A stretch of DNA of 64,000 bases from Yponomeuta sedellus (lineage: Eukaryota; Arthropoda; Insecta; Lepidoptera; Yponomeutidae), in NCBI GenBank assembly GCA_934045075.1, contig OW203722.1, positions 15,798,986 to 15,862,985 of the forward strand, read 5' to 3'. The notes below the pieces were generated by a model that was not told the origin of the DNA, searched no databases, and saw nothing but the letters and a program-made list of their open reading frames with translations. The first letter of the stretch is position 1. Each line of letters begins with the position of its first letter. The translations under genes were made by a program, and so were the position numbers. Positions 3,966-47,277 of this stretch are shown one piece after another.

Positions 3966-4231
3966 TAAACACAAGATAATATAAGAATATTCTTTACTAC
4001 ACGCAAGGAACCAAAGACCAATAAAAATACATCAAACTCGTACATAGTACTTGCAAATAAGTTTAACAATCGATGGATCGGTAGGCAAACCAGTAACCCG
4101 ATGGGTCGATGACATTACTAAAGCCGTCGTGTCTAATGGACGATTGGCAAGGGACCGAGAGGGTTAGTGTGATAGGCAAGAGGTATACGCCCAGCTGCGG
4201 ACTATGTTCTTGGGCTGGATGAACAGATTGT

Positions 4232-4350
4232 TTTATAACCCTATTTTAGAGGCTAAAAATTCAACCCATGCCGGGATTTGAACCCGCGATCGTGCCGAAA
4301 AATAGGTTTTTAAAATTGTCCTTAGCACGGGTTCGTGCATTAAAAATTAT
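4232..4350. repeat. SINE-A copy 1, twin-primed (inverted 5' part)
   Basis: Flanked by the 13-bp TSD ATGAACAGATTGT (4219-4231 and 4351-4363). The right part is the forward SINE tail (TCCTTAGCACGGGTTCGTGCATTAAAAAT). The left part is the same family in reverse (tRNA-like CATGCCGGGATTTGAACCC). The inverted arm starts next to the TSD at the sequence equivalent to GGTTTTTAA of the tail. Such 5' inversion between TSDs is the known signature of twin priming in LINE-driven retroposition. Confidence 0.75.
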
Positions 4351-4363
4351 ATGAACAGATTGT

Positions 4364-4690
4364 GTGAGTAGACTTTTAGCCCGGATCTACGTACGGGTGT
4401 TGTTATATCGGAAGAGTCCCACCAGGTTTCTCTAAAAGTCTACAATGTTATACTACTTTTATTTTTAATGCACTAACCCGTGCTAAGGACAAATTTAAAA
4501 ACCTATTTAGAGGCTAAAAATTTCACCCATACCGGGATTCGAACCCGCAACCTCTGGCTATCCGTGCCAGATAGCCGTGGCACGGATAGCCAGAGGTTGC
4601 GGGTTCGAATCCCGGTATGGGTGAAATTTTTAGCCTCTAAATAGGTTTTTAAGTCTACAATGTGTTGTGCTTACGAAAGTTTTAGTTCAA
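4364..4690 (+). repeat. Dispersed repeat G, interrupted by SINE-A copy 2
   Basis: Shares GTAGACTTTTAG, GGGTGTTGTTATATCGG and a GTGTTGTGCTTACGAAAG end with the copy at 14302-14485 (opposite strand). This copy lacks about 100 bases in the middle relative to that one and is split by the SINE at 4449-4650. The uninterrupted copy shows exactly what the site looked like before the SINE arrived. Confidence 0.65.
4449..4650. repeat. SINE-A copy 2, near-perfect foldback
   Basis: Flanked by the 13-bp TSD AAGTCTACAATGT (4436-4448, 4651-4663) and inserted in repeat G. The true 3' tail (TTTTATTTTTAATGCACTAACCC, minus sense) is at the left. The right arm is the inverted copy and stops at GGTTTTT beside the TSD. 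The arms meet near 4570-4577 in the anticodon-arm region of the tRNA-like part (spacer about 8 bases) and match almost perfectly for about 75 bases. Confidence 0.85.
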
Positions 4691-6037
4691 AAATTGTGTG
4701 AGTAATTAACATGTAATATGTATTTAATAATGCCATCTATTTAGGTTCATTTATTTACTCTTGGTTTTAAGCAAAGACGTAAAAAATCGTATATTAAACT
4801 GAGAACCGGCGCATCATTCAGACTAGCTACTAACATAGGAATTGTTGTGTGTGTGTTGATATACTTTTGGAAAGTGACTTATTAAAAAAAACTAACTGTC
4901 ATAGCTATTGTTAAAGCATGTTCATTTTGCTAAGGCTTTCAAACAACAAAATTCATTATTCTACGGATTGAATGTTATTTTAATCATTCTGAATTAAATG
5001 CTGCAACCTCGGATGGCATCAACCTTATGACAGTAATTTATTTAAACTTCAGTTATCATAATAATCTTAGAAGTTATAGAAATCTGTGTACCCACAGATT
5101 TCTGTAACTTCTACGATAATTATATACGATATGCAAATAAGTTTTATATTTATCCGAAACAAACACCAAGATCTTCGTCATTTACACGAGATTGTCTTTG
5201 AAAGGTATATAAAAGTATAAAAAAGTGTTTGCAATTTTCGTTTCCGAACGCCACTTCATCATGCCGCAATTAAAGTTACGCAAACGGGTGTAACACTCCA
5301 GCTTGCGATGTCCAGTATGTGCTTTGTACTTACGCTGTATGTATGTATGTATGTATGTATGTATGTACACTGGACCACGTATGCAATTAAACGCAGGCAT
5401 GGCGGGATAGTGTAGCTACAGTACACTCACTGACTAGACTTAGTTTAGAGGCACTTATTAATAAAAATATGATTCCTTAAAACACTCAGATACAGTTTAA
5501 AAAGTCTATAGTAAAATGCAAAACGTAACCAACATATTTATTTAAGTGGCCGTTGTTTACGATGGATCATGTTTTTATACATAAGATAAGATAAGCATAT
5601 TCTTTACTGTACACCAGAATACATATTAAAAACATGCAAAGATACAGAGTACAATTGGCGGCCCTATTGCTAAAAGCAATTTCTTCCATACAACCTTATG
5701 ACGGAAAGTTGCTGAAAGAAATAAGACCGTAATTATACCTAAATATACTTTAGACATCACATAACGAATTTTATATACTCCAGTTCTAGTTTAGAAAGCC
5801 TTCGCCTTGATAGTTGAATAAAATTATTTGATTTAGTTGTCTGAGTAACGTATCAAATCGGCTTTGTAGCCGGGTACTGGATAATTTTTCAGTTGACCTA
5901 AATAGCGTATACTGGCCTAGAGCTGCTATATAATTTATAGATCTACGTGGACTGAATCATGAAAAAAGCTTTATGTTACTTTGTGAGTCTAATAAAAAGG
6001 GTTCTCTCTCTACAGTAGAAAATGTAAATTTTTCTTC
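4691..6037. other. Unassigned noncoding sequence
   Basis: AT-rich with no convincing gene. Holds a short (TATG)n tract at about 5337-5366, which resembles the tail repeats of RTE-like LINEs, and a small inverted repeat around the ACAGATTTCTGT motif at 5094-5105. Nothing else recognised. Confidence 0.5.
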
Positions 6038-6172
6038 TTCTTCTTCAGGCTATATTAGTCTACTGCTGGACATAGCCCTCCCCTAATGAGCGACATAGCG
6101 CCCTGTCTTTAGCTTGGCGTATCCAGCAACTGCCTGCAGTTTTTCGCAGATCGTCATCCCACCTGGTAAATT
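6038..6172 (-). repeat. 3' end of an RTE-like LINE
   Basis: In minus sense this ends TATAGCCTGAAGAAGAAG, a short trinucleotide tail instead of poly(A), as in RTE elements. It carries the CTGCTGGACATAGCC and CGCAGATCGTCATCCCACC segments shared with 26188-26384. Severely 5'-truncated. A short possible duplication (GTAAATT) lies at each side. Confidence 0.65.
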
Positions 6173-6229
6173 CTACTTGATTAATTTATTTACGCAATTT
6201 AAGTAAGTTGGAACTAAACCTAAAACATT

Positions 6230-6913: not shown

Positions 6914-6967
6914 CCAGTAGCCAATTTAATGTATTTCAAAAAATCTTGAACTATCTCTAGGCCATAG

Positions 6968-7240: not shown

Positions 7241-9399
7241 CCTCCGATGAAAATTAGCTATTGGCGATTTAAGATCGATTTGAAACGATGTTAAAATTAT
7301 AAGCGTGTAAACGGTGACGGATCTGGCACGACCTAAAAATTAAATCATCACAGCACGCCTGCAGACAATGTCATATACACTCGTAGTATGATTTGGCGGC
7401 TTTCCATATTTAGGTATTTGTGTCTATTCTAGATAATCTACATACTGTCTGGTAGCGACTACTGTTACTAAGATTCCTTTACAAGACCAAGTCACAGTCT
7501 CATCCAGGAATTCTATTTCAGAGCCTCTCAAACAAGCGCACTAGGTATTATAGGTGATAACCGCACTGTAGCCTTCTCTGGAAGGCAGTACAGCACGTCT
7601 CCGGAGCGTGGGAGCCGGCCGCAGGTGCCTCGCACACAATGCGTTTCCTATGCGACTGGCAGATGCATCTGCCATAGACGGACAAACGCTTAGATGCGAC
7701 TTCGGGTACCTTTGCGGAAGATCCGGAACCGGAATATGTATGAAAAAGTTTTAGAGCGATGACATCGCGTGATATTTTGTTTCTAATAGAGTGGTATTAG
7801 CACTTCATCGCTGATATTTTTGTCGGAGTGTAACCTGGTTGCACTTTTCCGACACAAAGCCCAGTAAGTTTATACGGTTATAATCCAATGATATTTGTCA
7901 TTTTTGTAGTCTATACGAAATAGTTACATTAAAATGTCATTCACATTAGACACATCGAAATCTAAAAGATTTGAAAGCCGTAGTAATGTAATTAGTAATT
8001 GAAAATGCCAATGCCTATTTAGACTATTAGTTTTATTTATAAACGTAATATAAAAAAAAAATTGTTGGAAAATTAAGTTGAGAAATAAAATCTGCTTCTA
8101 AAATGCGCAAACGATTAGTACAAGCACTCCGTCTATTAAAACAATGACAGGTGGACCCGCGGCACGCACGCACTGCTCTGGCTGATTAATGGTTCTTATA
8201 ACCACCCAAGATTCAAGGCGTATACTACGTATGGATAGGCATACGAGTACATTGCGAAGGAAAAATCATAGCGCGAGGCGCCGAGGTTGCACGGGTTATA
8301 CCATCGGAACGCGATTGGTTGGTAGACTATAAACAATCTCAATAAAACAGCAATTGCCTGTCATTTACTAAATGCATAGTCATTCAATAGAGCGTATTCA
8401 TTACCTGTCCATTTAGCAGACTTGAACCCGTAGATATTTAGAATTTTATCGTCAACTACCTGTGCCTGCGATTTTGCACACTTTAATTTCGATGTACTTG
8501 TGGCGAGCACATGTCAACTCTGCGCGCGCGCTACAAACTTCAATATTCCTGCATCGCGCAATCAAAGTGTTTCAATGAAATACCATAAATATAACGTCCG
8601 ACTAACAATAGTCGGACCGGCCGTCCCCAGGCATACGATCTGCCTGGCGGGAAATTTCCGTTTATAGTGGAAGAGCATGATCACCTGCTCTTCCCTATAT
8701 ATTCTTAGGTCCCTCCTGAAGATCGAAATTTTTCAAATCAGATAAGTATTCGGAGATTACCTCCTATAAAAAAAAACATACAAAATTTACCCCTCTGTGA
8801 TATTAGTTTACATTTCTAATAGATTATAGAGTCTACCTACGTGTATGATCGCACGAAGAACTTTTTTTGCAACTTTGTAGATACATTAGAAGTAACGATC
8901 GCTCGCTGCAGCACGGGTACATGTAAGGTCTTATCTTTTGTTTTACTTTATGTTACGTGCCTGCTAACACTAAGATCTGTATCAAAGTTGATACGGTCGC
9001 TCTCGTAACAAATCAGCTTTAGTTAGAAGCGGTGGAAGGGCAATCAGTTGAACGCTTGCCTTATATGCGTTGTGTCTTGGATTCGATTTCCGGCACTGAT
9101 CAACGACTTTGATTACGTGCATTTCTTCAAGGATAAGCTGTCTTATGCATGCCTACTAACCTTAATTATACGTAATAATATATTTAAGAAATTTATTATT
9201 ATCTTTCTGGTGGTGCAACAAAGTGTTCTCTATCTATCGAAATCTAAATAATTAATCCGGTTTGTGAGTTCAACTGTCGTTGTAAGCCAAATATAACTCA
9301 GTAAGCAAACAAGAGAGCAAATGAGCAAGCGAGTAAGTAATTTATTATAATACAATACATCTTTCAATATGTATATTTACTTACATGTATACTTATTAT
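7241..9399. other. Unassigned noncoding sequence
   Basis: No supported gene on either strand. Contains the hairpin cluster at 8596-8694 and several homopolymer runs. A short plus-strand frame at 9048-9251 has no recognisable features and is not called. Confidence 0.5.
8596..8694. other. Cluster of four consecutive hairpins/palindromes
   Basis: Within 99 bases: GTCCGAC/GTCGGAC (8596-8602, 8611-8617), CCAGGCA/TGCCTGG (8627-8633, 8641-8647), palindrome GGAAATTTCC (8650-8659) and GGAAGAGCA/TGCTCTTCC (8669-8677, 8686-8694). All arms are perfect. Could be a structured RNA, a piece of a mobile element or binding sites; the sequence does not decide. Confidence 0.5.
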
Positions 9400-9410
9400 T
9401 ATTATTAATA

Positions 9411-9586
9411 GAAGCGCTCGTGGCCTAGTCGAACCGAGTGATTGAAATCAATCACTTGAGTTAAGCAACAACAGGCGCGGTCAAATGCAGGATGGATGAC
9501 CGTCCCGTAACTACAGCTAGTGGCATTTTTCCGATGCAGGAAGAGACCCGTGCCCCAGCAGTGGGGACATGCAAGGGTTGCTATCG
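9411..9586 (+). repeat. 5S-rRNA-headed SINE (SINE-D), internally deleted
   Basis: TSD TATTATTAATA at 9400-9410 and 9587-9597. The head contains AATCACTTGAGTTAAGCAAC, AGGCGCGGTC and GGATGGATGACCGTCCCG, which line up with 5S rRNA boxes A and C (TTAAGCAGCGTCGGGCGCGG, AGATGGGTGACCGC). The tail is CCCCAGCAGTGGGGACATGC. About 190 bases of the middle present in the 23.4-kb copy are missing here. Confidence 0.8.
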
Positions 9587-9597
9587 TATTATTAATA

Positions 9598-12711: not shown

Positions 12712-13084
12712 GTCGATATCAACCCTTATACGTCCCCACTGCTGCGGCACGGTCTCTTCCTGCATGGCGGAAAGGTTAGGCCATACTCCACCACGGGGGC
12801 CAGGTCCGAGTTGGTGGAGGATTGTAAGACAGTGGCGGCTCTTACTGTTAGAACGTATCAAGCCCATAAGGCCTCTGACATGGCTTAATGACTTGCATTA
12901 CATGACAGCCGGTACCAACGGCTTGACGTGCCTTGCGAAGCACGGAAGCGGACGGAGAAATGCCACTAGCGGTAGTCTCGTGGTAGCGAGACGGTTACCC
13001 ATCCTGCACCTGACCGCGCCTGTTCTTGTTTAATTCAAGTGATTGATTCCAATCACTCGGTTCGATTAGGCCACGAGAGCTTCG
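12712..13084 (-). repeat. 5S-headed SINE-D, near full length
   Basis: TSD CATAGTATGATAT at 12699-12711 and 13085-13097. Minus sense starts CTCTCGTGGCCTAATCGAACC, has the 5S-like AATCACTTGAATTAAACAAG and GGATGGGTAACCG segments, a middle shared with 23439-23800, and the GCAGTGGGGACGTATAAGGG tail. Confidence 0.8.
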
Positions 13085-14287: not shown

Positions 14288-14301
14288 CAGTAATATAGGA
14301 A

Positions 14302-14485
14302 CTAAAACTTTCGTAAGCACAACACATTGTAGACTTTTAGTCCGGATTTGAGAGTGTGAGACAAGCAACCGACGACGCGAGCTCCGTCTCTGCTCACCAT
14401 GATTAAGCTCTGCGAATCGGAGCGAAACCTGGTCGGACTTTTCCGATATAACAACACCCGTAAGTAAATCCGGACTAAAAGTCTA
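14302..14485 (-). repeat. Dispersed repeat G, complete copy
   Basis: Bounded by a 14-bp TSD CAGTAATATAGGAA (14288-14301, 14486-14499). Internally it carries a 22-bp inverted repeat (TGTAGACTTTTAGTCCGG with ATTT; mirrored by AAAT and CCGGACTAAAAGTCTACA). The long TSD says retroposition, so the inverted repeat is not a DNA-transposon terminus. The source gene is unknown. Confidence 0.65.
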
Positions 14486-15129
14486 CAGTAATATAGGAAA
14501 CGGAAGTCCAATTAAATACTCGAATTCTAAACAAAGTATAATAGGTAGATAGACAAATAAAGATACGGACTGATAAGCAACAGATTACAGATAACAAAAA
14601 CATTAAATGTAACAGACAGTAATTTATAGATTTTTTTTCTACATTGACATCGAATTAAGTCAAGACAAGAACTAAGTCATTTCAGACCATAAAAGATGTC
14701 TATGTCAATGCTTTTCGCATTATTAAAGCATTTTACGGACTCTCCAGAAACATGAATTATGTATACTTATACCTTGTTGAGACACTGTCCAGTTTCCACT
14801 TGATCTATAAGCTTTAATTTGCTATGGACAATCATTTTGACAAATCGCAATTCGGACTAGTAGTGCTAATCTCATATTTCATACCACTCATGAAGTGGCA
14901 AGACGTGATTGTAAAAACCGGGCTTCATTGGGATCAATAGCGTGACCAATGAAAAAAATTATCGCCGTTTATAATTTTTTTTTGCAAAAAGTAGTTCACA
15001 AATGAAAAACATAAAAACTAACCGAAACCGGCGTACGTGCATACAACGACTAATGAACGAAATGAATGAATGAAATAAAATCATGACTGAAATGAACCTG
15101 ATTTTTTCATTATCTTCTGTTTTTCAATC

Positions 15130-18620: not shown

Positions 18621-18628
18621 TAATTTTA

Positions 18629-18953
18629 TCAACCCTTGTATGTCCCCACTGCTGGAGCACGGGTCTCTTCCTGCATCGCAAGAAGGTTAAGCCATATTCC
18701 ACCACGAGGGCCAAGTCCGGGCTGGTGGAGGAGGAGACAGGGGCGGGCCTTACTGTCAGAAGTTATCAAGCCGCCCACAAGGCCTCTGACACCAATGCCT
18801 TAACGTGCCATGGAAAGCACGGAAGCGCACGGAAAAATGCCACTAGCAGTAGTCACATGACGGTCATCCATCCTGCTCCTGACTGCGCCTGTTGTTGCTT
18901 AATTCAAGTGATTGATTCTGATCACTCGGTTTGACTAGGCCACGAGCGCTTCG
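18629..18953 (-). repeat. 5S-headed SINE-D
   Basis: Same family and orientation as 12712-13084: tail at left (CAACCCTTGTATGTCCCCAC), 5S-like head at right (CAAGTGATTGATTCTGATCA, GGCCACGAGCGCTTC). TSD not clear. Confidence 0.75.
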
Positions 18954-18968
18954 AACTGTAAAAACAGT

Positions 18969-22988: not shown

Positions 22989-23317
22989 GCTCGTAGCCCC
23001 GTATCTAAGATCTGAGTGATCTTAATCGATCATGAAGGTTAAGCAACACAGGGCGCGTTCAGTGCATGGTTGGGTAAACAGTCTATGACTAACGCTAGTG
23101 GCATTTTTCCGAGCGGTTCCCAAGGCACGTCAAGCAGTTGGTGCCGGCTGCCGTCGATAGATGGCAGTCGATAAGCCAAGTCAAAGGCCTTAAGCCGGCT
23201 TGAAAATTTCTGTCAGTAAGACCAGCCTCTAGTCTTGCAAGCCTCCACCAATCCGGACTTGGCCCCCGTGGTGGAGTATGGCCTTTACCTTCCTCAGGGA
23301 AGAGACCCGTGCCCCAT
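22989..23317 (+). repeat. 5S-headed SINE, second subfamily
   Basis: Head CTGAGTGATCTTAATCGATC, GAAGGTTAAGCAACACAGGG, GCGCG-like stretch and a degenerate C box (GCATGGTTGGGTAAACAG); then GCTAGTGGCATTTTTCCGAG and the shared middle and tail up to AGAGACCCGTGCCCC. The head differs from the 9.4-kb type but aligns to the same part of 5S rRNA. Confidence 0.75.
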
Positions 23318-23438
23318 GGTATTATTACAAAGTTATTATATGCAATTTCTATTTCAGCAATTTATGTTTTCTTTTATATACGTCCCACAGAGCACAGGCC
23401 TTATCTCAGACAAAAATTTTATCCTTGATTTTAATTTA

Positions 23439-23800
23439 ATTAATGAAGCGCTCGTGGCCTAGGCGAACCGAGTGATTGGAATCAATCACTTGGTTAAGCA
23501 ACAACAGGCGCGGTCAGGTACGGGATAGATGAGAGTCCCGTGACTACCGCTAGTGGCATTTTTCCGAGTGCTTCGCAAGGCACGTAAAGCCGTTGGTGCC
23601 GGCTGTCATATAATGGCAGTCGTTAAGCCATGTCAGAGGCCTTATAGGCGGCTTTATAACTTCTGACAGTAAGGCCCGCCACTGTCTTACAATCCTCCAC
23701 CAATCCGGACTTGGCCCCCGTGGTGGAGTATGGCCTAACCTTCCTGCGATGCAGGAAGAGATCCGTGCCCCAGCAGTGGGGACATACAAGGGTTGATAAC
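23439..23800 (+). repeat. 5S-headed SINE-D, longest and cleanest copy
   Basis: TSD GATTTTAATTTA at 23427-23438 and 23801-23812. Head GAAGCGCTCGTGGCCTAGGC, 5S boxes (TTGGTTAAGCAACAACAGGC; GGGATAGATGAGAGTCCCG), middle with CTTCGCAAGGCACGTAAAGC and a GGTGGAGTATGGCCTAACC block, tail CCCCAGCAGTGGGGACATAC. Best reference for the family in this window. Confidence 0.85.
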
Positions 23801-23994
23801 GATTTTAATTTATATCTATTTATATCACGTTTTGTTTAATTAAACTATCGTAGGTACTTGATGTTTCTTGATGGATAAGCTATTTAAATTGTAAGAAGAC
23901 CTATAATGAGTTTGCTTGCAAGTGAAATGTCTTATCCAAACAATTTATGTTCCCTAATTCTCCCTTTAAATTGGAAATAGAAGCGTAAACTAAC

Positions 23995-24218: not shown

Positions 24219-24594
24219 TTACACTATTTTTATTTTTAATGCACTAACCCGTGCTAAGGAACAAATTTAAAAACCTATTTAGAGGCTAAAAATTTCACCC
24301 ATGCCGGGATTCGAACCCGCAACCTCTGGCTATCCGTACCAGCGCTCTACCAATTGAGCCAATGGGCGACTCACGGCATCAGTGAAATTTCGAAACTCTT
24401 TACAATATTCTCTGTATTACGTACAGGCAGCGACATCTGACTTAAGCAAATCGCATTACTTACAGCCCCGACTACCTACTTTGCAGTTAGGTTTAACATC
24501 GGAACAATATCACTGTACCCACATGATTACACTATTTTTATTGCACTAACCCGTGCTAAGGAACAAATTTAAAAACCTATTTAGAGGCTAAATT
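24219..24594 (-). repeat. SINE-A copy 3, head-to-tail dimer
   Basis: TSD AGGTTTTTGTTAA at 24206-24218 and 24595-24607. In minus sense: 5'-truncated tail of one unit (from TTTAGCCTCTAAAT region), junction AAAAATAGTGTAATCATGTG, then a full unit: 5' body of about 150 bases, tRNA-like region (GCCCATTGGCTCAATTGGTA ... GGGTTCGAATCCCGGC), and tail ending GTGCATTAAAAATAAAAATA. Box A- and box B-like motifs of a pol III promoter are intact in the tRNA-like part. Confidence 0.85.
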
Positions 24595-29780: not shown

Positions 29781-30066
29781 ATAGGATGTTACGAATAAGG
29801 TGGTGCATAGATACTATATAATGAGAAACAAAATATTTCTCAGCGAAGGCAAACTGGTGGAGTCTGTACACTTGGTACGGACCTGGGGTGCGCTCACTAG
29901 TTCTATGTGTAATATATGAATTGTGTGTGTATTAATTGTAGAGTGTTATGTGTGTGTGTTTTTTGTAAAGAAGTTTCATGTATATTAGCATGCAAGTCAT
30001 AATATTGCCAACAGCTCACAATTATTATTACAATAAAATTAACTATACTTAATGAGAGAAACCCAA

Positions 30067-31020
30067 TTAGGCAACTATTTTTTTGAGGTCGTTTTCGGAA
30101 GCGATGTTGATTTGCGGGGATTTTTCGTTTTTCCTTACATAAATGCGACAGTTTTTTGTCCATACGAAGGCATATGAGGCCACTTTTGCTTGAGTCTTAC
30201 ACGCTTGAAAGAGCTTTTTGTTGTTCGGAGTAAGATGTTCGTTAACGTAGATACGTTTTATATCGCCCTTTATGCCGATGACGCCCGTGTCCAAGTCACG
30301 GCGCTTACGAGCTTTAGACAGAAACTCATCCCTCACTCGGCGCTGGCGGAGACGAACGACTAAGTTGCGTGGTCGGCCGGGGGTAGCTCGCCTCGGTTGA
30401 ACTCGGTGTGCAAACTCTATGTCATCGTGGCTTAGGATGACATCAACGCTCTTTGCAAGCTTCTTAATAATTTCTACCGTGGATTCGCCCTCATTCTCAG
30501 GAATACCGACGACTTCAATATTCTGAAGGCGTGCCCATTGCTGTTGTTGTTGGTGTTCTCGCTCCAGATATTCCAAGCGGGATTCTAAGTCTTTGCATTT
30601 ACTGGTAAGCTGTGAGTTTTCAGCGCGTAACTCCTTTATTTGCTTGGTTTGTTGCTCAAACGTTCCTCTCATAGCTGAAAGCTCGTCTTGCAACACCTTG
30701 AACTTTGAATCAAAATGTTTGATTATCATCTGAGTATCAAGGCTAACTATAGACTCAGAGGTAAGTGGCTCTACTTCGGGTGTATTGAGAAATACAACAG
30801 GACTCATTGTTTGTTTATTAACTAACGTTGCTTTTTGAGGTTTGCAGGCTGGGCACTTCCACTTCGGTTTATTCATGGGCAGTATTTTCTTGTACTCAGT
30901 TTCAGTGCAATCGGCACAGTAGTAGTGATGATTACATTGACAAGCAGCACATTTTAAAAGTTCGTCATGCCTTACTGCTAAGTTGCATACTTTGCAAGCA
31001 GAAATTGCAGGTGGCGCCAT
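30067..31020 (-). CDS. LINE ORF1: PHD finger plus coiled coil
   Basis: Complete 317-codon frame upstream of the ORF2 above (gap 286 bp, no overlap). Residues ~9-58 form a full PHD-like finger (CKVC, CAAC, HYYC, CPAC). Residues ~85-165 are heptad-rich (LQDELSAMRGTFEQQTKQIK; LEYLEREHQQQQQWARLQ), a coiled coil for oligomerisation. The C-terminal half resembles the RNA-binding part of LINE ORF1 proteins (EVVGIPENEGE, AHRVQPRR, NLVVRLRQRRVRDEFL, IYVNEHLTPNNKKLF). No stop or frameshift. The ATG at 31020 fits the start of the finger. Likely role: binding element RNA to build the retrotransposition particle. Confidence 0.9.
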   Translation of the reverse strand: MAPPAISACKVCNLAVRHDELLKCAACQCNHHYYCADCTETEYKKILPMNKPKWKCPACKPQKATLVNKQTMSPVVFLNTPEVEPLTSESIVSLDTQMIIKHFDSKFKVLQDELSAMRGTFEQQTKQIKELRAENSQLTSKCKDLESRLEYLEREHQQQQQWARLQNIEVVGIPENEGESTVEIIKKLAKSVDVILSHDDIEFAHRVQPRRATPGRPRNLVVRLRQRRVRDEFLSKARKRRDLDTGVIGIKGDIKRIYVNEHLTPNNKKLFQACKTQAKVASYAFVWTKNCRIYVRKNEKSPQINIASENDLKKIVA

Positions 31021-33244: not shown

Positions 33245-33550
33245 TCATATCCCCGGCTGCCTGAGTGATCTTAAACGATCACGAAGGTTGAGCAACATAG
33301 ATTGCGTTCAGTGCATAGATGGATGACCGTATATCACTCACGCTAGTGGCAGTTGGTGCCGGTTGCCGTCGATAGATGGCAGTCCTTAAGCCGAGTCAAA
33401 GGCCTTAGGGCGGCTAGAAAACTTCTGACAGTAAGACCAGCCACTAGTCATGCAAGCCTCCACCAATCCGGATTTGGTCGCCGTAGTGGTGTATGACTTA
33501 TACCTTCCGCTGGGAGGAGACCCGTGCCCCTCGGTGGGGTCATAATGGGT
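33245..33550 (+). repeat. 5S-headed SINE, second subfamily
   Basis: Head CTGAGTGATCTTAAACGATC, GAAGGTTGAGCAACATAG, CATAGATGGATGACCG (closest to the 5S C box of all copies here), shared middle and AGACCCGTGCCCCTCGGTGG tail ending in a GATGATG run. Possible short TSD AAGTCTC. Confidence 0.75.
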
Positions 33551-34550
33551 CGATGATGCAGATGATTGAAGTCTCTTACTCCATCACAAACTCACAGGTT
33601 AAAATCTTTTAATGATTCCACGAGCAATTTTACCTACTTTTTAGTTTTGAATGAAGGTCGGCCGCTTTTTTGCATGGCAGATAACCAAATGAATGCCATC
33701 AATAAGTACTACAGGGAACGTACTTGTTACTGCTACAATTACTAAAATTTTACTTCAAGAACTGGTCAAGAGCCTGTCGTACTCTAACACCGCGGGTTCC
33801 GTACAAACGTGTAGGTATCTGATACATCGATAAAAATAAAATTTCTTACCCACGATAATTATTGTAATATCAATGCATGTCAAGGTCAATGAAGGTCAAT
33901 GATGAATTGATCATATTACTATAAATTGCATATTTTTTTTAACTATTTATATTTTGGTGAATTTCCACTAGTGTTAGTAAAATAAACGTTAACGTTGCCA
34001 ATTATTTCCAAAAAACTCCAAAAATACATCGTGTATAATGCCACCCGTAAAATAAAAAAATGGTTGTCATAAAACTAATAACTTAAGCGGTACTTTGTGG
34101 GTAAGTTTAACTACCTAACAAAATTAATGCAGAGGTAGTCGAAAGTGCTCAAACCCCACGATTTCCGCCCAGTCAAGGCGGCTGAGAACTTGGCCTGGTG
34201 CACAGCGACAGATTGCTAATATCGCAGGACATACTGTCTTCGTTGCTTAGAGCTAAAATCTCCCAACATAAGTCAATTCAATCGATTGCGAAATAATTAT
34301 GTGTATATTTTAATTTCCTATTTAAATAATTTATAAACTTTACACATGAAAGCAAAAAGTTACTCAATGTTTCATCATAATAAAGCGCAAAATCATTCGC
34401 AACAGGGAAACGTATCTTACCTATCTATTCTAATATTTTCATTCGCCGAACCAAAAACAACCTAACCTCCCACTCCTGCGCAAATAAAATTAACCTCTAA
34501 CATGAAAACTTTAAGCTCTAAAACCACTCAAAGTACAACCATAACTTAAA
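33551..34550. other. Unassigned noncoding sequence
   Basis: AT-rich; no supported gene or repeat. Confidence 0.45.
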
Positions 34551-36371: not shown

Positions 36372-36839
36372 GTATCAACACCAGAAAAAAGTAGAGTTAC
36401 AGATACTATGTTATTGAGCCGCGTAGATTTAGATACAATGCTGCAAAAAAAATATTAAATTAACTTTTCTGCTATCGTTTACATAGAGTGAGCTTTGGTG
36501 AATTTCAGACGTTAGCCTATTAGAGACAGGGCTTAAAATGTCATGCTGTCTATTCTTTTAAAGGTGTTGGTGCGAATGACTCGCTCACTCGCACAGTCGT
36601 AGGTAAGTACTACATAATAATAAGTGTCTGTGTACGTGATAACTCGTTTTGTATCCTTGCGTGACCGAGATTCGTATTTGCGGCGATTAATCTAAGAATA
36701 GGTCATTATATTCGCACCGATATCGATAGAAGCTGAAATGGATCGATGAAAATTCCGTTGTTTCACGGTGAAGAACTTTGGCTTTCGTAGTTTGTAATTC
36801 GCTGCCTCATTTCGACATCGATCGAAATCAAGCCTTTGT

Positions 36840-37058
36840 ATGTCCCCGCTGCTAGGGCACGGGTCTTTTCCTGCATCGCAGGAAGGTTTGGCCATACTCC
36901 ACCACGTGGGCCAAGTCCAGCTTAGTGGATTAATGTAAGACAGTGGCGGACCTTACTGTCAGAATTTATCAAGTCGCCCATAAGGCCTCTGACATGGCTT
37001 AACGACTGTCACTACATGACAGCCGGCACCAACGGCTTAACGTGCTTAGCGAAGCACG
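36840..37058 (-). repeat. 5S-headed SINE-D, 5'-truncated
   Basis: Tail and middle present (CTTTGTATGTCCCCGC, CCATACTCCACCACGTGGGC, ACATGACAGCCGGCACCAAC); the 5S-like head is missing. Confidence 0.75.
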
Positions 37059-37284
37059 GATGCCTTACTTGCCTTGTCGTATTTAGCAAATATTCACCAT
37101 CTATTGCCGGGTTTTTCTAACGAATTTTTCGCAATCTTCGCATCTTTCGAATCTTTTGTATAGCCTGCAATTTTAAATCGTCGGCATATACGCAAATACG
37201 AATAGCCAAGAATAATACCAGCACTAGAATATCTAAAAACGAAATCACCATTTGCAGACAAGTCGCTGTAAAGGTTTAGTTTAT

Positions 37285-37420: not shown

Positions 37421-37923
37421 GGGTCTATATACGTGTACAAAATAAACAACATAGATTGCAAAAACCCTTAAAAATAACCTAAGCAAAAATAATACACTAT
37501 ATACATAGACTAAATACCTGTAAATAGAAATAAATAAAATACTTTATAAATAATAAGTAAATATATAGCTCAAAGATATGATGGACATAAATAGTTCACA
37601 AGAGGATTACCACCTTTGTTTTTAGGTACCTTGGGGTGTTTATACACACACACCGAGAACCACACGATAATTAGAACAATATTTACATAGGAAGAAAAAT
37701 TCCTGGACCATATCAATAAAAAAAACAAAAAAAAGCCCCAGGTCTTGAATTTTTACATGTTTATGATGTTGCTGTTTTTGGTACCCAGGGTATCCTAGTG
37801 AGGGGCCAGAAGCAATGTATGTGCCACTATGTAAATGTTATGTTATTCACTGCATTATGTTGAAAAATTTATTGTTTAAAACATTTGAGAAAAGAAATCA
37901 GCTTTATAGACTGATATACATTT

Positions 37924-38152
37924 TTAAAAACCTATTTAGAGGCTAAAAATTTCACCCATGCCGGGATTCGAACCCGCAACCTATGGCTATCCGTACCAGC
38001 GCTCTACCAATTGAGCTCAATTGGTAGAGCGCTGGTACGGATAGCCAGAGGTTGCGGGTTCGAATCCCGGCATGGGTGAAATTTTTAGCCTCTAAACAGG
38101 TTTTTAAATTTGTTCCTTAGCACGGGTTAGTGCATTAAAAATAAAAATAGTG
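37924..38152 (+). repeat. SINE-A copy 4, perfect palindrome
   Basis: 17-bp TSD TAGACTGATATACATTT at 37907-37923 and 38153-38169. The forward half carries the full tail (CACGGGTTAGTGCATTAAAA...). The left half is an inverted copy beginning AAAAACCTATTTAGAGG right at the TSD. The halves meet with no spacer at CCAATTGAGCTCAATTGG, giving arms of about 90 bases with only one or two mismatches. Confidence 0.88.
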
Positions 38153-38448
38153 TAGACTGATATACATTTAATATATGTTATGCCCTTAGTAACTTATTCA
38201 GAAGTTTATTTTATTCACACACAGTCATAGGTCGTCGGGACTCAATCCGATAATATTTTCTCTCGTTTGGTCAACAACGGAAAATCCCCTGAGAGCACTG
38301 AATTCCAAACTAGAGTTTTACATAATTGCATGATCCTAGACAACTTTCCGACGATTCTATTAGGTCGACATTTTGCTTCAAAAACAAGAAAGAACACTTT
38401 TTATACATTACGGTTTTTTACGTTAGGTATGTTTTATTTACTAACCTA

Positions 38449-38885
38449 GCTGGTGCCCGCGACTTCGTCTGCGCAGGATTAGTATTTTGAGTAGCTTATT
38501 TTAGCGTGGCGTACAAAAGGTTTTGGCAGCGCACGCCAAAATAGCTCGCAGATGTTAGATTTTTTCCTACTTGAAACTTATCGTCATATTTTGGACAATT
38601 CACACAATATCCTCATAAATTGTCGCCTATGTGTTATTCTGATGTATAACTTAAGTTATTGAGTCGCCCATTAGCTAAGTTGGAAAAAGCGCTGGCGCTG
38701 ACAGCCAGAGGTCGCGGGTTCTAATCCCGGCATGGGTGGAATTTTTAGCCTCTAAATAGGCTTTTAAAGCTAAATTATTGTAAAGTTTCATTAAAATCCA
38801 CTCAAGAGAAACAAACATCCATCCATACTTACAAAGTTTCGCGTTTATAATATTAGTAGGAGTAGGATTTGATACTCTTATATAA
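38449..38885 (+). repeat. Lepidopteran-type dispersed repeat with nested SINE-A
   Basis: Starts CTAGCTGGTGCCCGCGACTT and ends GCGTTTATAATATTAGTAGG, both familiar from moth genomes. A forward SINE-A tRNA-like unit (about 38664-38768, TCGCCCATTAGCTAAGTTGG ... AGCCTCTAAATAGG) sits inside, between imperfect repeats of TAAGTTATTG/TAAATTATTG. Confidence 0.6.
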
Positions 38886-40412: not shown

Positions 40413-40576
40413 TTTACTATTTTTTACTTTTAATGCACTAACCCAAATTATTAAGGTTTTTTTTTTAATGTGATAATGATAAATAAATGTTATTTAAATT
40501 TCAATTTCAATTTCAACCCGTGCTAAGGACAAATTTCAAAAACCTATTTAGAGGCTAAAAATTCCACCTATGCCGG
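40413..40576 (-). repeat. SINE-A copy 5, truncated, with a later insertion
   Basis: 16-bp TSD GTATTATTATCATTAT at 40397-40412 and 40577-40592. Tail at left (TTTTTACTTTTAATGCAC), 5' truncation in the T-arm (ATGCCGGGT). The tail is split by about 67 extra AT-rich bases flanked by AACCC on both sides. Confidence 0.8.
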
Positions 40577-40592: not shown

Positions 40593-42730
40593 CACGGTGA
40601 CCGCTATTGGCAAGTATATGAGGTGCCGATACTCAGCAGTAGCTCTTTCTTCGTGTTCACGTCACTTGTTACAGTCCAGTATCACACGCATTTACTGTAC
40701 CTATGTCGGCTACTCGGCCTATATCGTCGGACCATCTGGTGGACTGCCGACTGATCGTTTACTATCTTCAGATTGTCATTCCGTTAGTGCCATCAGCAGT
40801 ATCCCATTCACAATTTTCAAATAATCTCTCATACACATTTCTAAAAATACCAAACATCCTACTGAGTTACCAATTTAAGCGCTGATATTCTAGAAAATAC
40901 GTCAATCGAAAATAGATTACCCTGCTCATATCACTCGCGTGCGACGTTAACATGGCTGGACGCAAATCGATTTTATTGCACAACATAGCTTATAATTGTC
41001 TGCGATAATTATCGCTCGTCGGATTCGCTCCAGTTGTTAGCGATTAAGAGTTTTTACCGACTGAGCTTTACAGTTACCTGGGACTCAAGACGTTGCGAAG
41101 TTATCGTGAGGTGTGTGTTACGGTATGATATGGATCATACAGTAAGCTGTCGACATAACTATATGTAACGACAGCTAATAAGTTTGCATTTATTGTATTC
41201 TACAGTAGACAGCAAATCACGAAAACCGAAAATCTAATGAGTTGGCTAAACTTGAAACTGGCACTTTTACTGAGAGAAAACTATGATTTACTGTGAAATG
41301 TTGAAAAAAGTGCGGATAGCACTCTGCGTATATATTTTTAATAGGTACCTACACTTGAATAAGAAAAAAATAAACCGAGATGCTTTTCCAGGCACATAAG
41401 TGATAGTAATCACCCCGTGATTTTATCTATATGTGACCTAAACAAAGGACGCCTCGGCGATATTTCCTACATTTGTAGCCAGATAACAGATGTTTCGTTT
41501 GAAAGAGGAGCAATTTCACCATCGTGCGTCAGTGCTTTTAACCTATGACTAACTGGGCATAGGTGTTTATTTGCAAACAAACGCTCGTTGAGTCGAGAGT
41601 GATTCTTTCGGAGTACCTGACCGTTAAGGACGCTGATCTCAACCAAAAATGTTGTGCAATCTGGTAAAGAATTGGACAATATTGAAGTAAACTCAGGCGA
41701 CCAGATCAAAGTTCAGATTTTTTCGTGAAGGTAGTTCATCATGAAATCATTGATGAATTATTATAATAATGAAAAAGTTTAAAATAGACTATTTTTAATA
41801 AAAGTTGCACTTAATATTTTGAAAATTTTTTTTTTAAACGGGACCCTTTTCAATAAACTTATGACGTCTGTATGTCCGTTAGTCTGACCTATAAAGGACA
41901 TTTTCTCTTGAACCTTAATCGGTAGACAGTTGACATTATCATAAATGTGTATTTTTATAGCAAATTGACCAACAAATATTAAAAGTAAAAAATAGTGCGG
42001 TAAAAAACACCAGCATCTCCACTTTGTGTTTTGTTTTGCTCTGTCGTGACCAGTATTTTTTTAAATACCTAAGTCATACAATTCTTACGGTGATACCGAA
42101 TTTTCAATGCGCAAGTTCGCCTCACACATGTCCTTTTTTATAACTCTAGCATAGAAATCCTAGAGGCCTAATCAAAGAAAACGCCCCATATCCTTGCAGC
42201 GACAGTTATTTTATAATTACACCTACAATACATCGGGTCTTGTCGTGACCATCGTAAGAGTATTCAGCAAAGGGCTGTAATTAAAACGTCACCAAGCTAT
42301 ACTCGTAGCATTGAACGAAGCGATCGTGAAATAAAAGCAATAGGTAGATAATTAATAACCATGCGCGCGGTTGCGACTATCTAGAGTTACAAAATGGTAA
42401 AGGCAACATTTTTACATATTTATGGTACTCAGGAAGCCATGGACTTGAAGAAATAAAGAATAAGAAGAAATATTGAACTAAAGTCGATAGATGATACATT
42501 TACATGCGTGCTACTACTCGGTTGCATTATGCACGAAATTTCAAAAGAAAGAGTAAGAAGGAAAATCAGCCTAAATATAAAGCAAGTATTTGCAATAACT
42601 CAACCAAATATAATGTAAATAGATACAGATAAACTGTAGAAATGTATCTACTGTGGATAGTGATGGCACATTAAGTAAAAAGCGGCAAAAAGTTTTCAAC
42701 CCGACTAGACTATCGAATATCATTCTTCAT
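40593..42730. other. Unassigned noncoding sequence
   Basis: Mostly AT-rich. A minus-strand 80-codon frame at 41467-41709 is open but has no recognisable domain and no clear splice sites, so it is not called. Confidence 0.45.
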
Positions 42731-42735
42731 CATCA

Positions 42736-42840
42736 GCCTATTATTTCCCCACCGAGGGTCACAGGTCTCTTCCCTAAGGAAGGTATAAGCCATACTTCAC
42801 CACGGGGGCCAAGTCCGGATGGTGGAGGCTTGCAAGATGT
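42736..42840 (-). repeat. 5S-SINE 3' end only
   Basis: CCCACCGAGGGTCACAGGTC, GAAGGTATAAGCCATACTTC and CCAAGTCCGGATGGTGGAGG match the tail of the 22.99-kb copy. Confidence 0.6.
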
Positions 42841-43832: not shown

Positions 43833-43842
43833 AAAACGTCGT

Positions 43843-44083: not shown

Positions 44084-45068
44084 TACTATTTTATTTTTAA
44101 TGCACTAACCCGTGCTAAGGACAAATTGAAAAACCTATTTAGAGGCTAAAAATTTCACCCATGCCGGGATTCGAACCCGCAACCTCTGGCTATCCGTGCC
44201 AGCGCTCTACCAATTGAGCCAATGGACGACTCACCGGCATCAGTGAAATTTCGAACCTCTTTACACTATTCTCTGTATTACGTACAGGCAGCGACATTTA
44301 CGTACAGGCAGCGACATTGGTAGGGCGCTTGCACTGATAGCCAGAGGTTGCGGGTTCGAATCCCGGAATGGGTGAAATTTTTAGCCTCTAAATAGGTTAC
44401 ACTATTTTTATTTTTAATGCACTAACCCGTGCTAAGGAACAAATTTAAAAACCTATTTAGAGGCTAAAAATTTCACCCATGCCGGGATTCGAACCCGCAA
44501 CCTCTGGCTATCCGTACCAGCGCTCTACCAATTGAGCCAATGGGCGACTCACGGCATCAGTGAAATTTCGAACCTCTTTACAATATTCTCTGTATTACGT
44601 ACAGGCAGCGACATCTGACTTAAGCAAATTGCATTACTTACAGCCCCGACCACCTACTTTGCAGTTAGGTACTTTGCGGATAGCCAGAGGTTGCGGGTTC
44701 GAATCCCGGCATGGGTGAAATTTTTAGCCTCTAAATAGGTTTTTAAATTTGTTCCTTAGCACGGGTTAGTGCATTAAAAATAAAAATAGTGTAATCATGT
44801 GGGTACAGTGATATCGTTCCGATGTTAAACCTAACTGCAAAGTAGGTGGTCGGGGCTGTAAGTAATGCAATTTGCTTAAGTCAGATGTCGCTGCCTGTAC
44901 GTAATACAGAGAATATTGTAAAGAGGTTCGAAATTTCACTGATGCCGTGAGTCGCCCATTGGCTCAATTGGTAGAGCGCTGGTACGGATAGCCAGAGGTT
45001 GCGGGTTCGAATCCCGGCATGGGTGAAATTTTTAGCCTCTAAATAGGTTTTTAAATCTCTAAATAGGT
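44084..45068 (-). repeat. SINE-A copy 6, twin-primed, split by copy 7
   Basis: Tail at left (ACTATTTTATTTTTAATGCA), then reverse unit to about 44318, with a tandem duplication of CGTACAGGCAGCGACATT, then a forward arm from about 44319 (GGTAGGGCGCTTGCACTG) to CTCTAAATAGGT at 44397; the same 12 bases recur at 45057-45068 after copy 7. Again the inverted arm ends in the AATAGGT(TTTT) region. Its own TSD is not clear. Confidence 0.75.
44398..45056 (-). repeat. SINE-A copy 7: twin-primed dimer inside copy 6
   Basis: TSD CTCTAAATAGGT at 44386-44397 and 45057-45068, made from copy 6. Left: true tail and a reverse unit down to the 5' body (44398-44671). Right: a forward segment from the tRNA region through the tail (44676-44793), a dimer junction TAGTGTAATCATGTGGG, then a whole second unit (44794-45056) ending at GGTTTTTAAA. 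The right arm therefore read a head-to-tail dimer RNA starting from the internal GGTTTTTAA site. Confidence 0.8.
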
Positions 45069-45084
45069 ATTATTTATTTATTTT

Positions 45085-45190: not shown

Positions 45191-45527
45191 TGTTATGTCA
45201 TCCTTATTGAGACATCCTTAGTGCCTCCAGCGTTTTACACTATTATTGGCCCCGGTAGAGACAAATATCGCGACATTCAAAGCAGACGTTTTGCCATTGG
45301 TTTAATGCAAATAATAATATCTAGGCTAAACTTCCGGCAATTCAGTACGGGCACCCGCATTATTTGAAAATACGTTTTGCTTGGTGATAGCCAACCTACC
45401 TATATATCGATTTTTTATGCTTCCTGCTCATTAGTCATGTAGAAACAATAGGTACGGAAAGAAGTGTTTAAGCGCGTTAAAAAAAAATTAAAAATACGTG
45501 TTGCTATTAGGAAATTTTTCGAGCGCT

Positions 45528-45840
45528 TCCGTGCTTCTCGGCTGTCATGTAATCTGCTGCTGGCAGTCGTTAAGCCATTTCAAAGGCCTTATAGGCGGGG
45601 TTCTGCGCCAGATAACCTTCACGTGTACCCCTCCACTTCTGTTCCCTCTGATTCTCTGAACCAGATGGAAGGGCAAGTGGTGGTGTCGGTGCACCCTGAG
45701 CGTTAGTCAATAACTTCTCCTTGAGGGATCTTGCTGGCTAACCGCGAATAATCTGACAGAAGGGGTCGCGTGGGCCCTGTTCAAGGAGAGCCCTGCTCTA
45801 TGGAGAGTGAAACAGGGCAGGACTGGGGGGGGGGGATAAG
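45528..45840 (+). repeat. 5S-SINE fragment followed by family J 5' end
   Basis: 45528-45602 matches the middle of SINE-D (GGCAGTCGTTAAGCCATTTC, GGCCTTATAGGCGG). From 45610 the sequence matches the start of the retroposon at 35440-36371 (GATAACCTTCACGTGTACCC; GGTGCACCCTGAGCG; GGGGTCGCGTGGGCCCTGTT). The 80-codon frame here spans both repeats and is not a gene. Confidence 0.65.
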
Positions 45841-46234
45841 ATTTTAAAAACATTGTATTAAAATAAACTAAACAAATGAAAAAAGTTACTTCAAACAATA
45901 ACAGTTTTGTATAACGAAAAACTGAAAATTTTGGCAAAACTCACCTAATTGCGGCAAAGTCCACAAGGAGGTGAGAAGAAACCAAACATTTCAAAGCTAA
46001 TATAACAATGCAACTCAACAGTGCAAAGACTCTCGCACTATTGAAGCAAGTTCATTCACCAGTCCCTCCGAAACTTCACAATTAATTACGTTGTATTTTA
46101 ATTATGAATTAGCCAGCTACGTCACGTAACGTCAGATCCCGCGGTGGGACCGGACGCGGCAGCGCTTCCGCCGGCCATTGTCGATCGGACGTGCCGCAGC
46201 TCGACGTGATGTGGACTAGTTTACCTTCTTTTTC

Positions 46235-46560
46235 AGGCTATATTCGTCCACTGCTGGACTCCCCTAATAGCCTGACGACGATGGCACAACAAGGTTGTGC
46301 CATCGTCGTCAGGCTATACTAGTCCACGGCTGGACAGGACATACCCCTCCCCTAAAGAGCGCCACGTTGTGCTAACATACGGGGTAATGCCCATAATCCC
46401 CACGCTGGGCATGCGGGTTGGGGATCGCAGTTGGGTGGAATTGTACTGCAGGGGGCGCTGCTGCCCACCCCCCGGTTTGTGTCCCTTAGTCGCCTTTTAC
46501 GACACCCGCGGGAAGAATTGTGTTGGTGCTATCTTCTAGGCTGACACCACACAGCAGCTT
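46235..46560 (-). repeat. RTE-like LINE end with a 20-bp perfect palindrome
   Basis: Contains CTCCCCTAAAGAGCGCC, CATAATCCCCACGCTGGGCA and GTCGCCTTTTACGACACCCG, shared with 50030-50294. At 46268-46312 CCTGACGACGATGGCACAAC is followed after two bases by its exact complement, duplicating the very start of the 3' tail. Confidence 0.65.
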
Positions 46561-46704
46561 TTCAAGTTATTGTAGACCTGTTCTTCGCTCGTCCGACTAT
46601 CGGACTGGGTTACTTGATACTAGTACCTAACTATCAATATCCTACGAGTGCACTCAACAACTTGCAAAGCTGAAACATGGTCATAGGAAAACACAAATTG
46701 TGTG

Positions 46705-47141
46705 ATTATATTAATTTTTTTTTAATGCACTAACCCGTGCTAAGGACAATGTTAAAAACCTATTTTAGAGGCTAAAACTTCCATCCATGCCGGGATTTGA
46801 ACCCGCAACCTCTGGCTATCCGTGCCAAAGCTCTTCCAACTGAGCTAATGGGTGACTCACCGGCATCAGTGAAATTTCAAACCTCTTTACAATATTCTCT
46901 GTATTAAGTACAGGCAGCGACATTTGGCTGAAGTAATTTGCATCACTTGTAGCCCACCTACTTTGCAGTTAGGTTTTTACATCGGAATGATATCGCTGTA
47001 TCGCTGTTAATATAATCATGTGGGTACAGCGATATCATTCAGCCCATTAGCTCAGTTGGAAGAGCGCTGGCACAGATAGCCAGAGGTCGCGGGTTCGTAT
47101 CTCGGCATGGGTGGAATTTTTAGCCTCCAAAATAGGTTTTT
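46705..47141. repeat. SINE-A copy 8, twin-primed
   Basis: 12-bp TSD ACAAATTGTGTG at 46693-46704 and 47142-47153. Left: tail and a full reverse unit to the 5' body (to about 47008). Right: forward arm starting at the SINE 5' end ATCATGTGGGTACAGCGATA, lacking most of the 5' body, then the tRNA-like part (GCCCATTAGCTCAGTTGGAA) and ending at AATAGGTTTTT. This copy shows the 5' end of the family is ATCATGTGGG. Confidence 0.85.
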
Positions 47142-47277
47142 ACAAATTGTGTGGCCAGACATACGGATATTACCCGTTTTTTACAAGTCGTAAATGGGTG
47201 TGATCAGCTATGCCCAGTCTCAACTATACGGACCATATGGACAGGGGTCAGCTGTACCCAGTCTCAACCATCTTCTT

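What the first reader, a model, noticed from the sequence alone, without database searches (positions are those of the whole stretch)
4219..47153. One SINE family repeatedly inserted by twin priming at the same internal site
Five SINE-A insertions (4232-4350, 4449-4650, 37924-38152, 46705-47141, 44398-45056) have an inverted copy of the SINE 5' part joined to a normally oriented 3' part, each between a perfect TSD of 12-17 bp. The split copy at 44084 looks the same. In each the inverted arm begins at the tail site GGTTTTTAA. Twin priming is known for LINE-driven insertions, but such a high rate at one fixed site would be unusual. The A-rich site next to AAATTTG could pair with T-rich ends of the second target strand.
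Basis: partly seen in the sequence, partly recalled or inferred. Interest (0 to 1): 0.9.

Follow-up and report, generated by a model that had tools for sequence, protein, structure and literature searches.

The report
Moth SINE copied around closed RNA
A short, very abundant jumping element in a moth or butterfly genome often inserts by copying its RNA from both cut ends of the target DNA, and the copying can run repeatedly through the same 308-letter unit as if the RNA were a circle, leaving palindromes and tandem repeats instead of ordinary single copies.

Summary
In the window, 6 of 10 copies of this tRNA-containing element are two-armed. In 364 kb of the same lepidopteran genome, 18 of 32 classifiable insertions are (Alu: 1 of 5,554). 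All 18 start one arm at GGTTTTTAAATTTG (q254-267). In 17 the other arm starts at the tail; the eighteenth ends at q176 without a target-site duplication.

Classic twin priming on one linear RNA fits at most some of them. Arms overlap by 70 nt or more in 11 of 18 (none in 2), and 6 of the 18 run through a head-to-tail joint into further 308-nt units, up to about four per arm. In one insertion, seven complete units over both arms are identical and carry three variants seen in none of ten other insertions compared. Genome-wide, 13,566 of 14,445 unit heads follow a tail in register, and palindrome centres do not pile up at that joint.

Best reading: both nicked target strands prime reverse transcription, at two fixed places, on one closed (circular) or concatemeric RNA. 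The 'internal site' is also the 3' end of 9 of 14 plain copies. No ribozyme was found. RNA circularity is inferred, not shown.

The parts
4232..4350 (+). copy c1, two-armed: site arm q262>208, tail arm about q248>296; TSD ATGAACAGATTGT at 4219-4231 and 4351-4363
4449..4650 (-). copy c2, two-armed palindrome (75-nt arms 100% complementary); TSD AAGTCTACAATGT at 4436-4448 and 4651-4663; paralogous empty site at 14299-14486
24219..24594 (-). copy c3, plain but tandem: q238>308 joined to q1>308; TSD TTAACAAAAACCT
37924..38152 (+). copy c4, two-armed palindrome centred at GAGCTC; TSD TAGACTGATATACATTT at 37907-37923 and 38153-38169
38662..38770 (+). copy c5, plain, 3' end at the site (GGCTTTTAA); imperfect TSD TAAGTTATTG/TAAATTATTG read by eye (one search scored only its last 6 bp)
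40413..40576 (-). copy c6, plain, 5'-truncated, ends at tail; TSD ATAATGATAATAATAC; carries a nested insert
44084..44397 (-). copy c7, two-armed (direct arm from q92), interrupted in its site arm by c8 and continuing after it; weak TSD
44398..45056 (-). copy c8, two-armed and rolled: site arm q263>1 then on through the joint q308>192, tail arm q36>308; TSD CTCTAAATAGGT at 44386-44397 and 45057-45068
46705..47141 (-). copy c9, older two-armed copy; site arm with internal deletion runs about 9 nt past the joint into the copy-specific tail; TSD ACAAATTGTGTG at 46693-46704 and 47142-47153
60704..60906 (-). copy c10, plain, 5' end about q106, ends at tail; TSD GTGGTTTA
44794..45049 (+). reference stretch for most of the 308-nt unit (q1 ATCATG, tRNA-like from q161, start of the site at q253)

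Best explanation
A tRNA-containing, non-coding retroelement of a lepidopteran is mobilised by a LINE-type endonuclease and reverse transcriptase. One target strand is nicked near 5'-T/GTTAA-3' (inferred). Its 3' end primes reverse transcription at the site UUUUUAAAUUUG (q254-267). The template is a head-to-tail continuous RNA of 308 nt per round, most likely a circle, so cDNA can run through the q308/q1 joint one or more times. If the other strand is nicked, mostly 12-14 bp away, before the insertion closes, its end primes a second cDNA on the same RNA at the tail (about q296-q4). The two cDNAs are joined at variable points, giving two unequal arms that often overlap and sometimes hold several units, between TSDs. 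If only the site is primed, a plain copy ending at the site results. Shown: two starts, TSDs, arm overlap in most copies, multi-unit arms, exact joint, shared private variants. Inferred: endonuclease motif, order of nicks, circularity of the RNA, identity of the LINE.
For: 17 of 18 two-armed insertions pair site with tail and none pairs two like starts; 9 plain copies end at the site and 5 at the tail. L015 2593-5099: site arm q262>1 plus three full rounds and on to q225, tail arm four full units, TSD ATGAGCATTTTAA. Seven full units in it are identical, and the variants 76T, 172T and 205A are in 8 of 8 passes over both arms and in none of the other 10 insertions compared where the position is covered; 9A in L006 8960 is in 3 of 3 passes; 55G in c8 is on both arms. 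Genome-wide, 13,566 of 14,445 exact heads follow RTRTA (93.9%), against 13,833 (95.8%) for an internal extension. Palindromes with heads 0-12 nt apart: 15 places (1.15 per offset), against 50 at 13-43 nt (1.6). 9 of 9 both-strand clusters among 100 listed heads have the order minus then plus; same-strand spacings peak at 308-309. Circular fold of the unit -94.7 kcal/mol against -73.3 (sd 5.1) for shuffles, 0 of 200 as low.
Against: No RNA was seen; circle and linear concatemer predict nearly the same DNA. 7 of 18 two-armed copies have arms overlapping by 37 nt or less, two of them by none. Plain 5' ends cluster at q102-109 (L010, L012, L022 3239, L027 1268 of 9 site-ended copies, and c10), which could be an RNA 5' end or a pause; palindromes there are 42 places over 17 offsets, 2.5 per offset. 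L026 5206 (unclear, complex) starts at q1/2 next to its TSD. L006 8960 has no TSD and stops at q176. Only 9,024 of 14,445 heads follow the exact tail TAGTGTA, the rest of the 93.9% being variant tails. In c3 the two tails differ by a 6-nt gap and one base. In older copies the arms disagree (L029 8739: 11 of 123; c9: 15 of 137). No ribozyme or other circularising signal was found.
Confidence: 0.6

Rival explanations
1. The template is a linear concatemer transcribed from tandem loci (such as the multi-unit insertions themselves), used from both target ends; no circle exists.
For: Loci with 2-4 units in register are common: 14 of 99 gaps between the first 100 listed tails are 300-315 nt. Units within one locus can be identical, so its transcript would be homogeneous.
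Against: The L015 2593 site arm needs a template of more than four units. No pile-up of palindrome centres at the joint marks a transcript end. Parent loci are often palindromic and their transcripts should carry inverted arms into daughters; arm junctions differ among the 18 two-armed copies.
Confidence: 0.22
2. End-to-end template jumping (as known for R2) from q1 of one linear monomer to q308 of the next makes the tandem arms.
For: Jumping is a property of the R2 polymerase (cited in PMC2718515, passages).
Against: 93.9% of heads are joined to a tail in register, close to the 95.8% internal control, so reverse transcription would hardly ever stop at the 5' end or add or lose bases there, while tail starts next to the TSDs vary by several nt. 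Private variants are shared by 8 of 8 passes in L015 2593.
Confidence: 0.07
3. Classic twin priming of one linear RNA (L1 type) with an unusually favoured second site.
For: Inverted segment between TSDs of 7-17 bp, often T-rich target end at an A-rich RNA site; 7 of 18 two-armed copies overlap by 37 nt or less, two by none.
Against: Arms overlap by 70 nt or more in 11 of 18 and 6 of the 18 pass the joint. The site is the 3' end of 9 of 14 plain copies. Other SINEs hardly do it: Alu 1/5,554, SVA 4/477.
Confidence: 0.05
4. Snap-back: the first cDNA folds and copies itself, making the palindrome.
For: Near-perfect palindromes such as c2 and c4; a short local fold-back at the 5' end of L012 2310.
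Against: In c1, c8 and c9 the site arm contains sequence absent from the other arm. The two arms start at different fixed places.
Confidence: 0.02
5. DNA-level amplification or homogenisation after insertion (unequal crossing-over, gene conversion).
For: Could equalise units within a locus.
Against: Arm ends, round numbers and junctions differ from locus to locus, and plain, tandem and two-armed copies lie between their own TSDs.
Confidence: 0.03
6. Assembly artefact (fold-back reads).
For: Palindromes are a known artefact class (general knowledge).
Against: Arms start at two fixed places, lie between TSDs, and recur at many loci on many contigs.
Confidence: 0.01

Closest known systems
Animal non-LTR retrozymes (passages of PMC7229834 seen)
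   Same: About 300-bp non-coding unit, head-to-tail dimers to multimers in the genome, TSDs longer than 4 bp, highly self-paired RNA, non-autonomous.
   Different: Type I hammerhead ribozyme, their defining feature, not found here; this unit has a tRNA-like domain and makes two-armed insertions from two fixed starts. The word 'inverted' has 0 occurrences in that paper's main text.
tRNA-derived SINEs of Lepidoptera (HaSE, PxSE; PMC3272025 first part and find, PMC8010984 outline and find)
   Same: Lepidopteran host, tRNA-like head, TSDs.
   Different: In the finds, 'inversion' and 'palindrom' do not occur in either paper and 'inverted' only in one reference title; 'tandem' was searched only in PMC8010984. 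Sequence identity to these families was not tested.
LINE-1 twin priming (PMC2912911 and PMC4245944, passages)
   Same: Both target strands prime; inverted segment; TSDs mostly 10-20 bp.
   Different: Here most arms overlap, some roll through several units, and both starts are fixed.
U5 snRNA/L1 twin-priming chimeras (PMC4476161, passages)
   Same: Second strand primes inside a structured small RNA at one recurrent single-stranded region (four U5 copies).
   Different: A few chimeras with L1; no multi-unit arms in the passages seen.
circRNA-derived pseudogenes (review PMC5345220, passages)
   Same: Circular RNA as template for genomic insertion.
   Different: A few mammalian gene-derived families, not a high-copy element.

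Membership tests
tRNA-derived SINE | tRNA-like domain with internal promoter boxes | tested here: met
   ARAGORN: 7 of 7 tRNA-like hits in the window lie in copies of this family; Rfam tRNA: 9 of 9 gathering hits likewise. Promoter activity not tested.
tRNA-derived SINE | RNA polymerase III transcript spanning the unit | tested here: inconclusive
   Two T5 runs lie between the tRNA-like domain and the tail, and q1-160 lie upstream of it; T5 effectively terminated pol III in a HeLa test (PMC8466645 passages).
tRNA-derived SINE | 3' tail shared with a partner LINE | tested here: inconclusive
   BLAST of the unit against the window found copies of the family and one 27-nt tRNA-like hit only; the LINE is not identified.
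tRNA-derived SINE | TSDs of variable length | tested here: met
   26 of 27 rows given gave a TSD, 6-17 bp; 36 insertions existed, the others are listed under Tried and rejected.
Animal non-LTR retrozyme | Type I hammerhead ribozyme | tested here: not met
   No ribozyme among 11 matches at E<=10 in a multi-unit stretch against Rfam 15; no CUGANGA core in the circular unit, either strand.
Animal non-LTR retrozyme | 150-450-bp unit in genomic tandem copies | tested here: met
   308-nt units, up to four in register per arm.
Animal non-LTR retrozyme | Circular RNA in tissue | not testable with these tools
   No RNA data.
L1-type twin priming | Inverted and direct segments copy different parts of one RNA with little overlap (recalled; no call) | tested here: not met
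   Not met in 11 of 18 two-armed copies (overlap 70 nt or more; ten scored, c7 read); met or nearly met in 7 (overlap 0-37 nt).
L1-type twin priming | Microhomology at the inverted-arm junction | tested here: inconclusive
   Often T-rich TSD ends abut the A-rich start, but exact overlaps are short and were not scored against chance.

The most novel reading that the evidence does not exclude
A high-copy tRNA-containing SINE whose mobile form is a ribozyme-less circular RNA, perhaps closed by the tRNA-processing and ligation machinery that its tRNA-like domain could recruit. A LINE enzyme primes both target strands on the same circle at two fixed places either side of a 3' hairpin and runs rolling-circle reverse transcription from both ends.
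Probability: 0.45. Interest if true: 0.92.

Novelty: new variant of a known kind. Interest (0 to 1): 0.8.

Why it matters
If true, a very abundant insect SINE-like element (52,589 exact tail and 69,282 exact site 26-mers in 657 Mb) uses a closed RNA template and double-ended target priming as a normal route. That would put a natural, high-copy record of second-strand events, a poorly understood half of LINE integration (abstract of PMC6895275 in the listing), within reach of plain sequence analysis. It would also link SINEs with circular-RNA retroelements that lack a known ribozyme. The palindromes are likely sources of hairpin RNA and genome instability (inference).

Tried and rejected
Snap-back self-priming: rejected because the site arms of c1, c8 and c9 contain sequence the other arm lacks. 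An inverted master copy amplified as such: rejected because junctions differ from copy to copy. A short pol III RNA ending at the T5 run as the only template of the site arm: disfavoured, since c8, c4 and c1 start beyond the T run with matching bases and some arms continue upstream of the tRNA-like domain. Linear RNA with a 5' end at q1: rejected. A 5' end at q102-109: not supported as a dominant end (repeated by mistake, same answer). Hammerhead or other known ribozyme: not found. Relatives in IMG/VR (3 patterns) and GTDB contigs (1 pattern): 0 hits (the tool notes that records of the own genome may be left out). DNA query in the own genome: 0 hits, probably because common words are skipped; patterns worked.

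One segmentation script failed, one was too permissive; one search replaced them. Of the 36 insertions, 27 rows went into. Left out: L006 8960 and c7 (two-armed), L010 (site-ended), L005 and L006 5413 (tail-ended) and the 4 unclear ones; one further row (L027 1268, site-ended) gave no TSD there. L027 1621, a tandem duplicate of L027 1268, is not among the 36. One search scored 10 of the 18 two-armed copies plus c3; the other 8 include the seven with overlaps of 0-37 nt. The T/GTTAA-like motif was read off the same rows on which it was scored, so those p values are not independent; the three tail-ended rows scored 1.33 at the left and 3.67 at the right edge. The 300-kb sample is not random: 20 of 30 loci flank the window.
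Full report
What is there. The window belongs to a 657.5-Mb genome (C1:15,798,986-15,862,985). Among the best-scoring named relatives of a LINE reverse transcriptase in it are proteins of Plutella, Euphydryas and Pieris, so the host is taken to be lepidopteran. The repeat is built on a 308-nt unit with a tRNA-like domain from q161, the site GGTTTTTAAATTTG at q253-266, a hairpin GCACGGGTTAGTGC at q274-287 and a tail ending GTGTA at q308. Ten insertions lie in the window. Six are two-armed (c1, c2, c4, c7, c8, c9), four plain (c3, c5, c6, c10). The five named copies have perfect TSDs of 12-17 bp, and the TSD of c2 is single in the paralogous repeat at 14299-14486.

Wider sample. I took 300 kb more of the same genome: L001-L020 beside the window and L021-L030 at 5 Mb on ten other contigs. 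A segmentation against the unit treated as a ring, plus reading by eye, gives 36 independent insertions: 18 two-armed, 9 plain ending at the site (q255-262), 5 plain ending at the tail, 4 unclear (L017 5641, L021 6112, L026 5206, L029 271). All 18 two-armed insertions have one arm starting at q254-267. In 17 the other arm starts at the tail; in L006 8960 it ends at q176 and no TSD is seen. None pairs two like starts. With starts drawn independently from the plain classes (9:5) a mixed pair has probability 0.459, so 17 of 17 has about 2e-6. Alu gives 1 of 5,554, SVA 4 of 477 and L1 639 of 2,068 5'-inverted insertions (PMC2912911 passages). Another repeat family of nine copies in the window showed no reversed arm in self-BLAST, but its kind is unknown.

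Shape of the arms. In c1, c8 and c9 the site arm contains sequence missing from the other arm, so it is not a fold-back copy. Overlap between arms is 70 nt or more in 11 of 18 (ten scored: 70 to 308 positions; c7 about 81), 15-37 nt in five (L003, L022 2559, L026 1664, L027 2678, c1) and none in two (L002 5284, L019 3539). The last seven are what classic twin priming could make. Six of the 18 pass through a head-to-tail joint into a further unit: L015 2593-5099 has a site arm q262>1, then three full rounds and on to q225, and a tail arm of four full units, with a 13-bp TSD; L006 8960, L015 1882, L029 8739, c8 and c9 pass it too, as does plain c3.

One continuous template. Seven complete units of L015 2593, from both arms, are identical; 76T, 172T and 205A occur in 8 of 8 passes and in none of the ten other insertions compared where covered. 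L006 8960 shares 9A in 3 of 3 passes and c8 shares 55G on both arms. Against this, old copies disagree between arms (11 of 123 positions in L029 8739, 15 of 137 in c9), and the two tails of c3 differ by a 6-nt gap and one base.

Genome-wide counts. Exact tail 26-mer 52,589; exact site 26-mer 69,282; exact head 23-mer 14,445; the backward-pattern control is 0 each time. Of 14,445 heads, 9,024 follow exact TAGTGTA and 13,566 (93.9%) follow RTRTA; a 7-nt extension inside the unit survives in 13,833 (95.8%). A run-off 5' end at q1 would give many heads without a tail and a pile of palindromes centred there. Head-to-head palindromes number 15 places at gaps of 0-12 nt and 50 at 13-43 nt. At q102-109, where several plain copies end, there are 42 over 17 offsets. 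Among 100 listed heads, 9 of 9 clusters with both strands (within 1.5 kb) have the order minus then plus, same-strand spacing peaks at 308-309, and 15 of 28 plus-strand heads have an exact 26-mer tail just upstream against 18 of 28 downstream. In listed stretches of C1, 31 of 100 exact sites run on into an exact tail, while 31 of 66 exact tails have an exact site before them. Mutation confounds this, but it agrees with many copies ending at the site.

Priming. At the left TSD the two-armed copies mostly read T-rich target, then AAAAACC of the site arm, consistent with target T's on AAA of the site; exceptions are c8 (AGAG) and L019 (TTTC). Both nick edges resemble one motif, T/GTTAA: on average 3.75 of 6 matches at the edge whose strand primes the site, 3.0 at the edge priming the tail (16 two-armed rows), 4.0 at the first-nick edge of 7 plain site-ended copies and 2.3 at their other edge, against 1.70 background. 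The motif came from the same rows, so this is a lead.

Template form. The unit folded as a circle is unusually stable (-94.7 against -73.3, sd 5.1, kcal/mol, 0 of 200 shuffles; antisense -63.6), although its last 81 nt alone are not (z -0.75). Its 5' part, q129-160, is a diverged reverse complement of about q216-247 (0 of 2,000 shuffles reach the score), probably a fossil arm now part of the unit (inference). Rfam at E<=10 shows tRNA at gathering, three microRNA models and one lncRNA piece below their gathering scores, and no ribozyme. Animal non-LTR retrozymes are the closest kind (PMC7229834 passages): about 300-bp units, tandem copies, circular RNA probably closed by a tRNA ligase. Their defining hammerhead is not met, so this is filed as working like one, not as a member. 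A linear concatemer remains the main rival. I saw no description of this combination in the listings, but those cover only open-access text and few terms.

Noticed in passing
unit, e.g. 44794-45049 (q129-160 against q216-247): The 5' part of the unit is a diverged reverse complement of the sequence around the 3' end of its tRNA-like domain (0 of 2,000 shuffles), like a fossil inverted arm now part of the element.
   Followed up: partly
52184-52829: Inverted repeats (147-nt arms 97% and 79-nt arms 96% complementary) with many TTCCCATCTTCCAACC-like motifs; another palindromic repeat, unidentified.
   Followed up: no
46250-46330: Short palindrome AGCCTGACGACGATGGCACAAC...GTTGTGCCATCGTCGTCAGGCT at the edge of a different repeat.
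   Followed up: no
4366-4695 and 14299-14490: Two copies of a MITE-like element with ends GTAGACTTTTAG; the first hosts copy c2 and seems flanked by ATTGTGTGA.
   Followed up: partly
27490-31020, minus strand: LINE with a PHD-like first ORF, endonuclease-like and reverse-transcriptase ORFs (labels by eye); named relatives of the RT in Lepidoptera. No shared 3' end with the SINE seen by BLAST.
   Followed up: partly
54802-59261, plus strand: Two long ORFs that look like an LTR retroelement (by eye) in a stretch of strong negative GC skew (-0.22 to -0.25).
   Followed up: no
9396-9596, 12713-13083, 18626-18955, 23012-23809, 33261-33566, 36821-37063, 42719-42837, 47888-48022: Another repeat family (up to about 370 bp, nine copies), without inverted arms; three copies have an 11-13-bp direct repeat at the ends.
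   Followed up: partly
L017 5600-5862: Old tail copies of the family form a palindrome that includes flanking CCTTGTCAC/GTGACAAGG, so it is not a TSD; unexplained.
   Followed up: no
L025 6927-7000: A site-ended plain copy is followed, at its TSD, by a short reverse complement of its own 3' end.
   Followed up: no
L005 9587-9782: A tail-ended plain copy reads on past the joint as ATCATGTG (q1-8) before the flank; no TSD was found, so it could be real read-on or chance.
   Followed up: no
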